From: Thermoanaerobaculia bacterium
GTDB taxonomy: Bacteria; Acidobacteriota; Thermoanaerobaculia; Multivoradales; J023
DNA length: 64,000 nucleotides
Assembly: GCA_028066595.1 (NCBI GenBank)
Contig: JALCBJ010000005.1
Span: 107,933-171,932, forward strand
Direction of reading: 5' to 3'
How positions within the stretch are numbered: position 1 is the stretch's first letter; each line of letters begins with the position of its first letter. Under the pieces are notes generated by a model. That model was not told the origin of the DNA and did not search any database. It was given only the letters and a program-made list of their open reading frames with translations. A program made the translations under genes and the position numbers. Positions 54,979-59,671 of this stretch are shown in pieces.

Positions 54979-56637
54979 CTACCTCGCGCTGGGCTGGTGG
55001 GCGGGTCGAAGAAGGTCGAAGACGGTTTTCACAGGCGCGAAGATCGAAGCCGGGATCTCCACGAAGACGGTATTCCAGCGCGCCATGGCGCCATTCCAGA
55101 GCCCCGGGCGTTCGAGCACTCGAATCGGTTGCCCTTGGTGGGACTTGTTGCTCAGGAAGACCGTGTCGGGGTCGACGAAAGACGCGAGGTCATAGGGATC
55201 GCCGCGGTGCGAGCGCAGGCGGCAGACCATATTCACAGGGTTGAAATGGGTGGCTGCTCCAGCGATGTCCGTTTGCTGCGGATCGCGACGATTCACTTGC
55301 GCCTGCTCGACGATCTGGGGGGTAGTGACCTGTCCGACCTCGGAATCGGAGGACACATGGCGTACCCAAAATGGGCCGCCGCCCGGCTCACCCTCGTTCT
55401 TCACCATGCCGCAGACCCGCAGCGGCCTGTCGAGCCGGTCCACCAACCAAGCATGCTTCACCCGTAGTGGACGGTCTAGGTAGTCGAGAGCGTGGGCCAG
55501 GTTCAGCCTTTCCGCGGCGAAGCGTAGGCCAGCGTCGACCTCGGACTCGCCCACGCTACCCGCGCGTTCGGCCCGTTCCAGTGCACCGAGGTGCTGCACG
55601 ATGCCTTGCTCCAGCTCCAACAGATAGCCTCCGAGAAGACGATTCCACAGCAGGACCTCGCGACGCTGCGCCGCCGGCAACACGTTGTCGATCGTCCGGA
55701 GGAAAACCAGGTCGGCGCCAGTCTCCTGTACTACCTCTCCGAGGTTCACCAGCAGGGCACCATGACCGCCTGGACGAAATAGCAGCCGCCCTTCCTCGTC
55801 GCGCAACGGTGCGGCGAGCTCAGAGCTTCCGTCTTCCGCCAGACGGACTGCCACGGTATCGGTCGATGGACGCTGGATCGAGCAACTCAGCTCGTAGCGT
55901 CCGCCGAGCCTCGCTTCGAGACGAGCCACGATGTCGCGGAAGGCCTGTCGGAACTCCAGCTCCCGGTGCTGGGGAATGGTGAAATGCACGCTGCAGACAC
56001 CATCGTGTGACCGTAAGTGCTCTGCTGCTTCCTCGACGTGCTCGTCGAGAGGGGTGCGGGGTCCGGAGTCCGTGGCGTGAAACGGAATCAGCGCCTTGGG
56101 ATACGAGCCAAACCCGAGAGCTGGTGCGTCGTCTGTCGCTTCGTCGAGGAGCGCTTCGAGAGCTGACTGGGCTTCGGCCTTTCGGGCCAGCTCGTCGAGT
56201 TCGAGGCCGCGCTCGTTTAGGACCTCGCTGAGGAGATCCCGGAACGGGAAGCGGCCCATCTCCGACAGAAACCGTTTCGCCTCGTCTGCCTCTGTGCTTC
56301 CTAGTTTCAGCGTCCCGGCGTTCCGCGCGGCGAGTAGCCCGCGGAACATTCGGGTTGCGGCCCCCGAGGCGGGCACGAATTTGGCAAATCGGCCCGCCGC
56401 TGCCGCCGCCTGGAACCGGTCCTGCAGCGCGGCGTGTCGCTGTTCGGACAATCTCAGGATCCCATCCCCGACCGTGCAGGGGCGATCGAGCTGAATCGGA
56501 GGCGGCTCGTGGCGGAGTAGTCGCAACTGACGGGACACTTCCGCCAGGTCTAGACCGTGGCGTTCGATCCGAGCTCGGTCGGTTTCGGTGAGTCCGTCCG
56601 GGAATGTTCCGTGCGGGCTGTGCTCGGATCCTGACAT
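54979..56637 (-). CDS. DUF4301 family protein
   Basis: AAAGRFAKFVPASGAATRMFRGLLA...GRPL-like PLRVCGMVKNEGEPGGGPFWVRHV...ATHFNPVNMVCRLRSHRGDPYDLASFVDPDTVFLSNKSHQGQPI. Confidence 0.75.
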   Translation of the reverse strand: MSGSEHSPHGTFPDGLTETDRARIERHGLDLAEVSRQLRLLRHEPPPIQLDRPCTVGDGILRLSEQRHAALQDRFQAAAAAGRFAKFVPASGAATRMFRGLLAARNAGTLKLGSTEADEAKRFLSEMGRFPFRDLLSEVLNERGLELDELARKAEAQSALEALLDEATDDAPALGFGSYPKALIPFHATDSGPRTPLDEHVEEAAEHLRSHDGVCSVHFTIPQHRELEFRQAFRDIVARLEARLGGRYELSCSIQRPSTDTVAVRLAEDGSSELAAPLRDEEGRLLFRPGGHGALLVNLGEVVQETGADLVFLRTIDNVLPAAQRREVLLWNRLLGGYLLELEQGIVQHLGALERAERAGSVGESEVDAGLRFAAERLNLAHALDYLDRPLRVKHAWLVDRLDRPLRVCGMVKNEGEPGGGPFWVRHVSSDSEVGQVTTPQIVEQAQVNRRDPQQTDIAGAATHFNPVNMVCRLRSHRGDPYDLASFVDPDTVFLSNKSHQGQPIRVLERPGLWNGAMARWNTVFVEIPASIFAPVKTVFDLLRPAHQPSAR

Positions 56638-56642
56638 CGACG

Positions 56643-57209
56643 TCAGTCCTCCGACCAGAGCGGAAGCCGGTCGCGCACCTCGGACAATGCCGCCGCCCCG
56701 GCGTCCTTGGCCGACAGAAGGGGAGCCCCGTCGAGAGGCCAGTCGATGCCGATCGCGGGGTCGTCCCAGGCGACCGTCAGTTGGTGCTCGGCGTCATAGA
56801 CATCGGTACATTTGTACTGCACCTCCGCTACCTCGGAGAGGACGTAGAAGCCGTGCAGGTAGACCGGCGGTATGTACAGTTGGTGATGATTCTCGGACGA
56901 GAGGTGGAATCCGACCCATTTGCCGAACGTCGGCGCTCCGATCCGCGTATCCACTGCGACGTCGAAGATCTCACCGGCCGAGCAGCGCACCAGCTTGCCT
57001 TGGGGCCTGCGATCCTGACCGTGGAGTCCCCGGAGGGTACCCTTCTTCGACTTCGAATGGTTGTCCTGAACGAACGTCGCTTCGAGTCCTAGCTCGGCGT
57101 ATTTCTCTGAGTGGTACGTCTCTACGAAGAACCCGCGATCGTCACCGTGTATCACGGGCTTCACCAACAGGACTCCGGGGAGGGACGTCTTCTCGATCTC
57201 CAGGGCCAT
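56643..57209 (-). CDS. rfbC: dTDP-4-dehydrorhamnose 3,5-epimerase
   Basis: LPGVLLVKPVIHGDDRGFFVETYHSEKYAELGLEATFVQDNHSKSKKGTLRGLHGQ...YIPPVYLHGFYVLSEVAEVQYKCTDVYDAEHQLTVAWDDPAIGIDWP. Confidence 0.93.
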   Translation of the reverse strand: MALEIEKTSLPGVLLVKPVIHGDDRGFFVETYHSEKYAELGLEATFVQDNHSKSKKGTLRGLHGQDRRPQGKLVRCSAGEIFDVAVDTRIGAPTFGKWVGFHLSSENHHQLYIPPVYLHGFYVLSEVAEVQYKCTDVYDAEHQLTVAWDDPAIGIDWPLDGAPLLSAKDAGAAALSEVRDRLPLWSED

Positions 57210-58321
57210 CAGCCGGAAGCTCCCGCTTCCTTTGTCTCGGATTGGCCCGAGCCCAGGCGCTGCCGATCGTATTTGTCGGCCAGAACCTTCTTGCACCAGT
57301 CCTGGTTGTCCAGGTACCAGCGTACGGTCTCGCGCAGGCCCGATTCAAAGTCGTGGCGTGCTGCCCATCCCAGTTCGGAGCGGATCTTCGAAGAGTCGAT
57401 GGCGTACCGCCAATCGTGCCCGGGCCGGTCGGTGACGAAGCTCTTCAAGTCGGTGTACGACGTCTTGCCGGCGGCCCGAAGTGTTGCGTTCTCTGCGGCG
57501 GGCAACTCCTCTTCCAGCACCTCGCAGATCCGGTCGACCACCTCGAGGTTGGTGCGTTCGTTGTGCCCACCAATGTTGTATTTCTCACCCACCCTACCCG
57601 AGGCGAGCGCGAGCAGGATGCCGCGGCAATGGTCGTCGACGTACAGCCAGTCGCGAACGTTCGAGCCATCGCCGTAGATGGGAAGGTTGCGGCCCTCGGT
57701 AGCGTTCAGGATCATCAACGGGATCAGTTTTTCGGGGAACTGAAACGGGCCATAGTTGTTGGAGCAGTTGGTGATCACTGCGGGCAAGCCGTAGGTATGG
57801 ACGTATGCGCGCACCAGATGGTCTGCCGCCGCTTTCGACGCAGCGTACGGCGAGTTGGGTGCGTACGCCGTCGTCTCTTCGAAGAGACCGGTCGGACCCA
57901 GGCTGCCGTAGACCTCGTCGGTGGAGACGTGGAGGAATCGAAATCGTTCCCGAGCCTCTTCGTCGAGGGACGCGAATCGGTGCCTGGCGGCCTCCAACAG
58001 CTCGAAGGTACCGACGATGTTGGTGCGTACGAAATCGCCCGGACCATCTATGGAGCGGTCGACGTGACTCTCCGCGGCGAAATTGACCAGTGCGCTCGGC
58101 GGCAGCTCGGCGAAGAGGGAGCGCACGTCCTCGCGCCGGGCGATGTCGCCTCGAACGAAGCGGAAACGTTCGTGACCTTCGACATCGCGAAGATTCTCCA
58201 GGCTGCCAGCGTATGTCAGCGCGTCGAACACAACCACCTCGGCCTCGGTCTCTGCGAGGGCCAAGCGGACGAAGTTGGAACCGATGAAGCCGGCTCCACC
58301 GGTGACGATCATGCGTTGCAT
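57209..58321 (-). CDS. rfbB: dTDP-glucose 4,6-dehydratase
   Basis: MIVTGGAGFIGSNFVRLALAETEAEVVVFDALTYAGSLENL, FAAESHVDRSI, STDEVYGSLGPTGLFEETTAYAPNSPYAASKAAADHLVRAY. Stop/start overlap TGATG with rfbC. Confidence 0.95.
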   Translation of the reverse strand: MQRMIVTGGAGFIGSNFVRLALAETEAEVVVFDALTYAGSLENLRDVEGHERFRFVRGDIARREDVRSLFAELPPSALVNFAAESHVDRSIDGPGDFVRTNIVGTFELLEAARHRFASLDEEARERFRFLHVSTDEVYGSLGPTGLFEETTAYAPNSPYAASKAAADHLVRAYVHTYGLPAVITNCSNNYGPFQFPEKLIPLMILNATEGRNLPIYGDGSNVRDWLYVDDHCRGILLALASGRVGEKYNIGGHNERTNLEVVDRICEVLEEELPAAENATLRAAGKTSYTDLKSFVTDRPGHDWRYAIDSSKIRSELGWAARHDFESGLRETVRWYLDNQDWCKKVLADKYDRQRLGSGQSETKEAGASG

Positions 58322-58497
58322 CGAGAAGGTTCCGAGGAGGGAAGGGGACGGGGAGGAGTGGGCGGGTGACGCCGCAGGGTCGGGAGGATCGTAGACCATC
58401 CGACCTCGGCGCGGTCGCGAGTATACCGAGGCCATGACGGGTCTGTTGCAGGCATCTCGTCCAGGCCTGCGGTGAGATTCACGGCGCCGTACCCTGC

Positions 58498-58527
58498 TTG
58501 ACAGTTCGACCGACTGGTTGGTAGGCT
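58498..58527 (+). promoter_or_regulatory. Candidate sigma70-like promoter for a plus-strand sRNA
   Basis: TTGACA (58498-58503), 18-nt spacer, TAGGCT (58522-58527). Confidence 0.4.
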
Positions 58528-58532
58528 CGCTC

Positions 58533-58600
58533 CGCGAGGGGGCGAAATCCTCCTCTCATCCCTCCCAACGAGGGGCGCCAAAGCGCCCCTCCTTTTTTTT
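58533..58600 (+). ncRNA. Candidate small RNA with C-rich anti-Shine-Dalgarno region and intrinsic terminator
   Basis: Hairpin GAGGGGG-CGAAAT-CCTCCTC (58536-58555), linker with CCCTCCC (58560-58566), terminator 58570-58600; promoter-like boxes upstream; no plus-strand CDS nearby. The transcript itself is inference. Confidence 0.45.
58570..58600 (+). terminator. Strong Rho-independent terminator
   Basis: GAGGGGCGC-CAAA-GCGCCCCTC perfect 9-bp stem followed by C and T8 (58593-58600). Confidence 0.85.
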
Positions 58601-58624: not shown

Positions 58625-59671
58625 CTACGGCTTGACGCCGTAGGGCGCTAGAAGAGCTGCAGCCTCTCCGAGGTAGCCCTGGGTGCGGACCAAATGTTCT
58701 TGTGCCTGTTGCACTCGGGCGGCGTTACAGTCGACCGCGAGAGCCTGCATCTCGACGAAAGCCCGCCGCAGCGGCTCGACGACCTTTTTGTCCGGAGCTG
58801 AGGCGAACACCTGGGAGCTGTCTTTCAGAATCGGAATCACGGCCCGGCTCAGGTCGCGGCATGCCGATCCGACCCCACGATTTCTCTCGGCCTGTGCTCT
58901 CAGGTAGTCCGCCAGAGCTTGCTTGGCGGGTACGACGGCGGGTCGGTAGACCTCCTGATGCCAGTGCTGCATCAACTGGGTGAGAGTCGGCCCTTCCGGC
59001 TCGTCCGGTTCTTCTGTTTCCAGATAGTCCTGGTACTGACCTTCCGCTTCGACGGCCGCCATCTGGATGCCTGGCAGGTAAGGAGCGATGGCTTCGGCCT
59101 TTCGTTCGTCGTCTGACAGAACCAGTCTGCCCAGTTCGCGAACCTCTCTCTCGATCTTCTCGACCGTCTCCAAGACCTCGAGCTGAAAGCTGTCGAAGGG
59201 TGCTACCGGTACGGCCACCAGATCGCACAGCCGTCCCGAGTGTTCGGCCATGCGACGGAGAGATGCGCCGGCTTCGCGTCGGATTTTCGGTTGCAACTGG
59301 TCCAAAAGCTCATCGGCCACGTCACCGGCCTTGCGGAAGCTCGCCATTTCTCCGGTATGGCTCTGCAGAATCCAGTCGCGGATGCGCTGTTCTTGATGCT
59401 CATTGGTACCCGCCATTCGGTTCCAGCGGGTCGAGATGCCCTCGGACAGTTGCTGACACCCCTCGAACTGATAGTCGAGCAACGCCAGGATCGTGACCGC
59501 TTCCTTGCCTGCATCGGGCAGTGGCACCGAGGCGCCGAGCGCAGCTTGGGGCAAGGTGAAGGATCCGATGAGAGAGGCTGCGACCGCGACCCACGAGACG
59601 ACCCTCCCAGGATCTTGGGGTCGGGCGCGAAGTTCCGGGGCAGCGGCGGCGAAGGTGCAGACTGATTCCAT
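58625..59671 (-). CDS. Hypothetical secreted helical protein
   Basis: Long ORF with N-terminal hydrophobic segment (VAVAASLIGSFTLPQAALGA) and helical, polar remainder. Confidence 0.65.
   Translation of the reverse strand: MESVCTFAAAAPELRARPQDPGRVVSWVAVAASLIGSFTLPQAALGASVPLPDAGKEAVTILALLDYQFEGCQQLSEGISTRWNRMAGTNEHQEQRIRDWILQSHTGEMASFRKAGDVADELLDQLQPKIRREAGASLRRMAEHSGRLCDLVAVPVAPFDSFQLEVLETVEKIEREVRELGRLVLSDDERKAEAIAPYLPGIQMAAVEAEGQYQDYLETEEPDEPEGPTLTQLMQHWHQEVYRPAVVPAKQALADYLRAQAERNRGVGSACRDLSRAVIPILKDSSQVFASAPDKKVVEPLRRAFVEMQALAVDCNAARVQQAQEHLVRTQGYLGEAAALLAPYGVKP

What the first reader, a model, noticed from the sequence alone, without database searches (positions are those of the whole stretch)
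58498..58600. Candidate undescribed small RNA with C-rich anti-Shine-Dalgarno element
Seen: a textbook terminator (9-bp perfect stem, 4-nt loop, T8) on the plus strand where neighbouring genes on both sides are on the minus strand, so no CDS accounts for it. Upstream are TTGACA-N18-TAGGCT, a 7-bp hairpin (GAGGGGG/CCUCCUC, one G-U) and a linker AUCCCUCCCAAC able to pair with GGGAGG/AGGAGG ribosome-binding sites. Known: several bacterial sRNA families expose CCUCC-type loops to repress translation. Inference: ~68-nt trans-acting sRNA. Alternative: 3' stem protecting the minus-strand gene 58625-59671, though T8 lies on the wrong side for that gene's termination.
Basis: partly seen in the sequence, partly recalled or inferred. 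Interest (0 to 1): 0.68.

Follow-up and report, generated by a model that had tools for sequence, protein, structure and literature searches.

The report
New TetR-linked C-rich bacterial small RNA
A tiny, previously undescribed RNA gene with its own switchable promoter is conserved in four families of Acidobacteriota and probably silences messenger RNAs by covering their ribosome-binding sites; this phylum has almost no described regulatory small RNAs.

Summary
Window 58498-58600(+) holds TTGACA-N18-TAGGCT, a 7-bp hairpin, an unpaired C-rich linker and a 9-bp terminator with T8. It is a conserved RNA gene: BLAST and a covariance model find 15 copies in 14 genomes from four families (f1, f6, f7, f8) of one Thermoanaerobaculia order (Acidobacteriota). 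CCUCCUCUCAUCCCUCC is identical in every copy, and in 14 of 15 it continues CAA. The 5' arm, loops and terminator vary, with a clear compensatory terminator pair. Every copy has its own -35/-10. Most sit between uppP (after rmlBC) and a convergent chalcone-isomerase-like gene, so there is no downstream gene to regulate in cis. Rfam has no match. New finding: in three genera the promoter spacer carries a 14-bp imperfect palindrome, ACCGACTGGTTGGT. Its only other exact copies in those genomes lie upstream of homologous TetR-family genes, so the RNA probably belongs to a TetR regulon. Most likely mechanism: derepressed when the TetR ligand appears, Hfq-assisted, its UCCCUCCC seed blocks GGGAGG-type ribosome-binding sites. 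Transcription and targets are not shown; no conserved target was found. Novelty: a new sRNA family of a known mechanistic kind.

The parts
58498..58503 (+). -35 hexamer TTGACA
   Evidence: sequence; TTGAC(A/T) at this place in all 15 copies, spacing 17-18 to the -10
58509..58522 (+). imperfect palindrome ACCGACTGGTTGGT between -35 and -10; probable TetR-family operator
   Evidence: in genera g1, g2, g3 (one mismatch in G001); exact copies elsewhere in these genomes lie upstream of TetR-family genes
58522..58527 (+). -10 hexamer TAGGCT (TAnnnT in relatives)
58534..58600 (+). predicted sRNA, about 66-68 nt (5' end inferred from -10 spacing, +/-2 nt)
   Evidence: BLAST hits in 13 of 59 relative genomes including own; CM R1 hits
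58536..58555 (+). 5' hairpin GAGGGGG/CCUCCUC; right arm invariant, left arm varies with G-C/A-U/G-U pairing kept
58556..58569 (+). single-stranded C-rich seed UCAUCCCUCCCAAC; UCAUCCCUCC identical in all 15 copies, UCAUCCCUCCCAA in 14
   Evidence: alignments A1, A2; about 85-100% unpaired
58570..58600 (+). intrinsic terminator: 9-bp stem, 4-nt loop, T8
   Evidence: G-C/A-U compensatory pair across families
57209..58435 (-). rmlB-like (dTDP-glucose 4,6-dehydratase-like) neighbour, divergent; followed by rmlC-like 56643-57296
   Evidence: Pfam; rmlB near the sRNA in most relatives
58625..59671 (-). convergent orphan ORF (348 aa, no Pfam match); not part of the conserved locus
   Evidence: no tblastn match in any other locus fetched

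Best explanation
58534-58600(+) is the gene of a trans-acting, probably Hfq-assisted small RNA. It is transcribed from its own sigma-70-type promoter, and in this genus and two sister genera that promoter is probably repressed by a TetR-family regulator bound to the palindrome in the spacer. When the ligand releases TetR, the RNA accumulates; its stable 5' hairpin and terminator stem protect it and display the C-rich linker UCAUCCCUCCC. The linker pairs with G-rich (GGGAGG) Shine-Dalgarno regions of target mRNAs and blocks translation initiation. Shown (computationally): conservation, structure, promoter, shared operator, no co-directional neighbour to regulate. Inferred: transcription, TetR binding, Hfq binding, SD pairing. 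Targets unknown.
For: 15 copies in 14 genomes of four families. CCUCCUCUCAUCCCUCC identical in all copies while the surrounding letters of the RNA vary; linker unpaired. One terminator pair is G-C in 7 and A-U in 7 distinct sequences. TTGAC(A/T)-N17/18-TAnnnT at nearly constant distance in every copy. Conserved synteny with uppP upstream and a convergent Chalcone_3 gene downstream, hence no cis target. Exact palindrome elsewhere only in front of TetR-family genes in G001, G003, G006; a TetR homologue in G004 has ACCAACCGGTTGGT. Hfq above cut-off in own genome. C-rich/UCCC seeds pairing with SD regions are proven in LhrC (PMC4132741) and NfeR1 (PMC10746234).
Against: No expression data. The 11-mer complementary to the seed is not clearly enriched in sRNA-bearing genomes and its sites show no shared gene. 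The cognate TetR was not found in the window's own genome: the two nearest homologues (53-55% identical to the G001 protein) lack a good operator copy. The operator is not in families f6-f8 and is replaced by another palindrome in genus g4. Hfq also occurs in relatives without the sRNA.
Confidence: 0.74

Rival explanations
1. The RNA is real but acts by sequestering a protein or another RNA (a sponge) rather than by pairing with ribosome-binding sites.
For: No conserved mRNA target was found with the 11-mer seed complement; the invariant block (17-20 nt) is longer than a minimal SD-pairing seed needs.
Against: The linker is an unpaired C-rich stretch with perfect complement to GGGAGG, the same arrangement as the proven UCCC seeds of LhrC (PMC4132741). 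A CsrA-type GGA motif is not conserved (f1 copies have GGGGGC in the 5' arm).
Confidence: 0.14
2. It is a 3' UTR/terminator of the upstream gene uppP (or a 3'-UTR-derived sRNA), not an independent gene.
For: uppP lies directly upstream and co-directional in f1 and f6 relatives.
Against: The window has no uppP match, yet RNA and promoter are intact; in f7 uppP is about 1.8 kb away; every copy has its own -35/-10; G002 carries a tandem second copy with its own promoter.
Confidence: 0.05
3. It is only a terminator or protective 3' stem for the minus-strand gene 58625-59671.
For: The hairpin lies about 33 nt beyond that gene's stop codon.
Against: On the minus strand the hairpin is preceded by A8 and not followed by a T run; the gene has no homologue at the other loci while promoter, seed and 5' hairpin are conserved.
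Confidence: 0.02
4. It is a cis-acting leader/attenuator of a downstream plus-strand gene.
For: A 5' hairpin followed by a terminator resembles attenuator layout.
Against: The conserved downstream neighbour is convergent; the 5' hairpin and terminator do not compete in the predicted folds.
Confidence: 0.02

Closest known systems
LhrC1-5 (Listeria monocytogenes, UCCC-motif sRNAs; PMC4132741)
   Same: Short RNA with a C/U-rich UCCC motif in a single-stranded stretch between a 5' stem-loop and the terminator, proven in LhrC to bind the G-rich region upstream of the start codon and block translation.
   Different: LhrC has three redundant CU-rich sites including loops and is a multicopy family under the LisRK two-component system; here there is one invariant linker, mostly a single copy, and a probable TetR operator. 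No homology shown.
NfeR1/alpha-r14 (Rfam ar14, RF02344; PMC10746234)
   Same: Ultraconserved C-rich anti-Shine-Dalgarno motif in unpaired regions while stems diverge; silences mRNAs at the translation initiation region.
   Different: alpha-r14 has three hairpins each with CCUCCUCCC; the window scores 14.8 bits against a gathering score of 58.8; different phylum and layout.
Acido-1 (RF01686) and Acido-Lenti-1 (RF01687), known Acidobacteria ncRNA motifs (PMC2864571)
   Same: Noncoding RNAs described from Acidobacteria.
   Different: Neither appears among the matches at gathering or permissive threshold.

Membership tests
alpha-r14 / NfeR1 (RF02344) | match to the Rfam covariance model | tested here: not met
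   14.8 bits, gathering 58.8
alpha-r14 / NfeR1 (RF02344) | three hairpins, each with unpaired CCUCCUCCC | tested here: not met
   two hairpins, one linker AUCCCUCCCAA
LhrC / UCCC-type sRNAs (functional kind) | unpaired UCCC-containing motif | tested here: met
   UCAUCCCUCCCAA about 85-100% unpaired, invariant in 14-15 copies
LhrC / UCCC-type sRNAs (functional kind) | translation block of a target through SD-region pairing | not testable with these tools
   needs reporter assays; target sites not resolved
Independent intergenic sRNA gene | own promoter and intrinsic terminator conserved | tested here: met
Independent intergenic sRNA gene | detected transcript | not testable with these tools
   no RNA-seq available
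Hfq-dependent sRNA | host encodes Hfq | tested here: met
   G000:C54, E = 1.1e-14, above cut-off
Hfq-dependent sRNA | Hfq binding | not testable with these tools
   U-rich tail present in all copies but no binding data
Member of a TetR_C_24 regulon | same operator at regulator gene and at sRNA in one genome | tested here: met
   in G001 (one mismatch at the sRNA), G003, G006
Member of a TetR_C_24 regulon | cognate regulator with operator in the window's own genome | tested here: not met
   of the nearest homologues the two examined have only sites with 3-4 mismatches; assembly is 95% complete

The most novel reading that the evidence does not exclude
The sRNA is the post-transcriptional arm of a ligand-sensing TetR regulon in Thermoanaerobaculia: one repressor controls its own gene and a C-rich sRNA, and repressor control of the sRNA is re-wired between genera (a different palindrome fills the same promoter spacer in genus g4), while the seed stays frozen.
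Probability: 0.45. Interest if true: 0.68.

Novelty: new member of a known kind. Interest (0 to 1): 0.55.

Why it matters
Acidobacteriota are almost blank for regulatory RNA: a 2022 review counts 4 annotated sRNAs in the phylum against 345 in Proteobacteria (PMC9029176). This family gives a concrete, short, conserved sRNA with a predicted regulator, a predicted seed and close relatives to compare. It fits the view that C-rich SD-pairing seeds arise repeatedly in unrelated phyla, and offers a direct test of Hfq-sRNA regulation in this phylum.

Tried and rejected
Rfam at gathering and permissive thresholds: no family. Phylum-wide CM search of 396 genomes: outside the class only scores of 33 bits or less, read as chance terminators. 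Exact 19-mer in Sphingomonas and a Desulfurococcales archaeon: no matching hairpin or terminator, taken as chance. Two further seed-plus-terminator candidates (G006:C357, G147:C10): not conserved in relatives. Target search with the 11-mer complement: no clear enrichment, no shared gene. Literature search for the exact operator: none. Covariation in the 5' hairpin: one-sided changes only, so no compensatory support there (the alignment register of the left arm is off by one in some rows, so per-sequence folds were used).

Full report
What is there. The plus strand at 58498-58600 reads TTGACA - 18 nt - TAGGCT - about 6 nt - GAGGGGG CGAAAT CCTCCTC - TCATCCCTCCCAAC - GAGGGGCGC CAAA GCGCCCCTC - C - T8. 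The RNA folds into two hairpins joined by an unpaired linker (-31.3 kcal/mol, z = -4.1; accessibility). A perfect 9-bp GC-rich stem with at least 7 T occurs at this one place in the window and never in 60 Markov copies. On the minus strand the same hairpin is preceded by A8 and lacks a T run, so it fits termination of plus-strand transcription only.

Conservation. BLAST of 131 bases hits 13 of 59 relative genomes including the own one, always over the predicted RNA. Collection titles identify the relatives as Acidobacteriota / Thermoanaerobaculia metagenome-assembled genomes. A covariance model from 14 copies run over 148 genomes of the class finds them again and adds G026. In all there are 15 copies in 14 genomes: seven genomes of family f1 (with a tandem second copy in G002) and genomes of f6, f7 and f8. 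G027 was found by BLAST and confirmed with the model on its locus. Families f2, f3, f4, f5 and f9 of the same order gave no convincing match. Phylum-wide, nothing outside the class exceeds 33 bits.

Pattern of change. CCUCCUCUCAUCCCUCC is identical in all 15; 14 continue CAA. In the CM alignment 1 of 17 columns of the 5' part, 17 of 20 of the CCUCCUC-linker block and 12 of 26 of the terminator are invariant. The terminator has one pair that is G-C in seven distinct sequences and A-U in seven; 98% of its cells pair. The 5' hairpin keeps pairing through A-U/G-U changes on its left arm only (GAGGGGG, GAGGAGG, GGGGAGG against invariant CCUCCUC). In the two f8 genomes the predicted minimum-energy fold pairs the left arm with the linker instead, so a two-state 5' arm is possible there. 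A frozen unpaired block between drifting stems is what a base-pairing seed predicts.

Promoter and operator. All copies have TTGAC(A/T), 17-18 nt, TAnnnT, 19-22 nt before the CCUCC block. In genera g1, g2 and g3 the spacer carries ACCGACTGGTTGGT (ACCGACTGATTGGT in G001). Across the seven f1 genomes the only other copies of the searched pattern, apart from those of the tandem G002 locus, are in G001:C17, G003:C60 and G006:C935. Each lies upstream of a gene for a TetR-family protein; the G006 protein has TetR_N and TetR_C_24 domains and is distantly similar to FadR-type regulators but far below the curated cut-offs. A TetR homologue in G004 has the perfect palindrome ACCAACCGGTTGGT. In genus g4 (G004, G005) the sRNA promoter has another inverted repeat, CACCGGG-N5-CCCGGTG type. 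The simplest reading is a TetR that represses itself and the sRNA. In the window's own genome the closest TetR homologues lack a good operator, so the cognate repressor there is unidentified.

Locus. In f1 and f6 the RNA follows uppP (BacA, PF02673), with rmlB/rmlC-like genes beyond, and in most loci it faces a convergent Chalcone_3 (PF16036) gene. In f7 uppP is about 1.8 kb away. In the window uppP and the Chalcone_3 gene have no match and an orphan ORF stands downstream; the RNA and its promoter are intact. There is no conserved co-directional downstream gene, which argues against a leader or attenuator, and the own promoter argues against a mere uppP 3' UTR.

Mechanism. Inference: the exposed linker pairs with GGGAGG-type SD sequences (model duplex of the linker with GGGAGG -12.3 kcal/mol, with UAAGGAGGU -9.0). 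Precedents with proven pairing are LhrC (PMC4132741) and NfeR1 (PMC10746234). Hfq is encoded in the own genome. A search for the 11-mer complement in 20 genomes gave no convincing excess, once the sRNA genes themselves are set aside, and no shared target; shorter or imperfect seeds could not be tested because the whole genome was not available as a file.

Verdict. It is a new sRNA family, not a member of any Rfam family, and probably works like the C-rich SD-pairing sRNAs. Transcription, targets and TetR control remain to be shown by experiment.

Noticed in passing
L075 (G006:C357:8440-8517, minus): A second sRNA-like element with the same seed UCUCAUCCCUCCCA before a strong terminator and CCCUCCCAACCCC in a hairpin loop; found in only one genome.
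   Followed up: partly
L077 (G147:C10:4822-4891, minus): sRNA-like element in another family of the class: hairpin with a C-rich loop, then UCAUCCCUCCC and a strong terminator; not conserved in its family.
   Followed up: partly
L012, L013 (sRNA promoters of G005, G004): The promoter spacer carries a different long inverted repeat (ACACCGGGAAAAACCCGGTGT in G005), as if another repressor had taken over control.
   Followed up: no
L078 (G006:C452:1521-1538): An exact copy of CCTCCTCTCATCCCTCCCAA without hairpin or terminator, just downstream of what looks by eye like an IstB-type transposition ATPase frame; possibly a fragment carried by a mobile element.
   Followed up: no
G009, G017, G024 (family f4): Three genomes of family f4 gave no Hfq match and also no sRNA match.
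   Followed up: no
window 58625-59671: 348-aa ORF without any Pfam match and without homologue in the loci fetched from other genomes.
   Followed up: partly
window 54979-56637: DUF4301 protein (E = 1.8e-156), function unknown, next to rmlC/rmlB.
   Followed up: no
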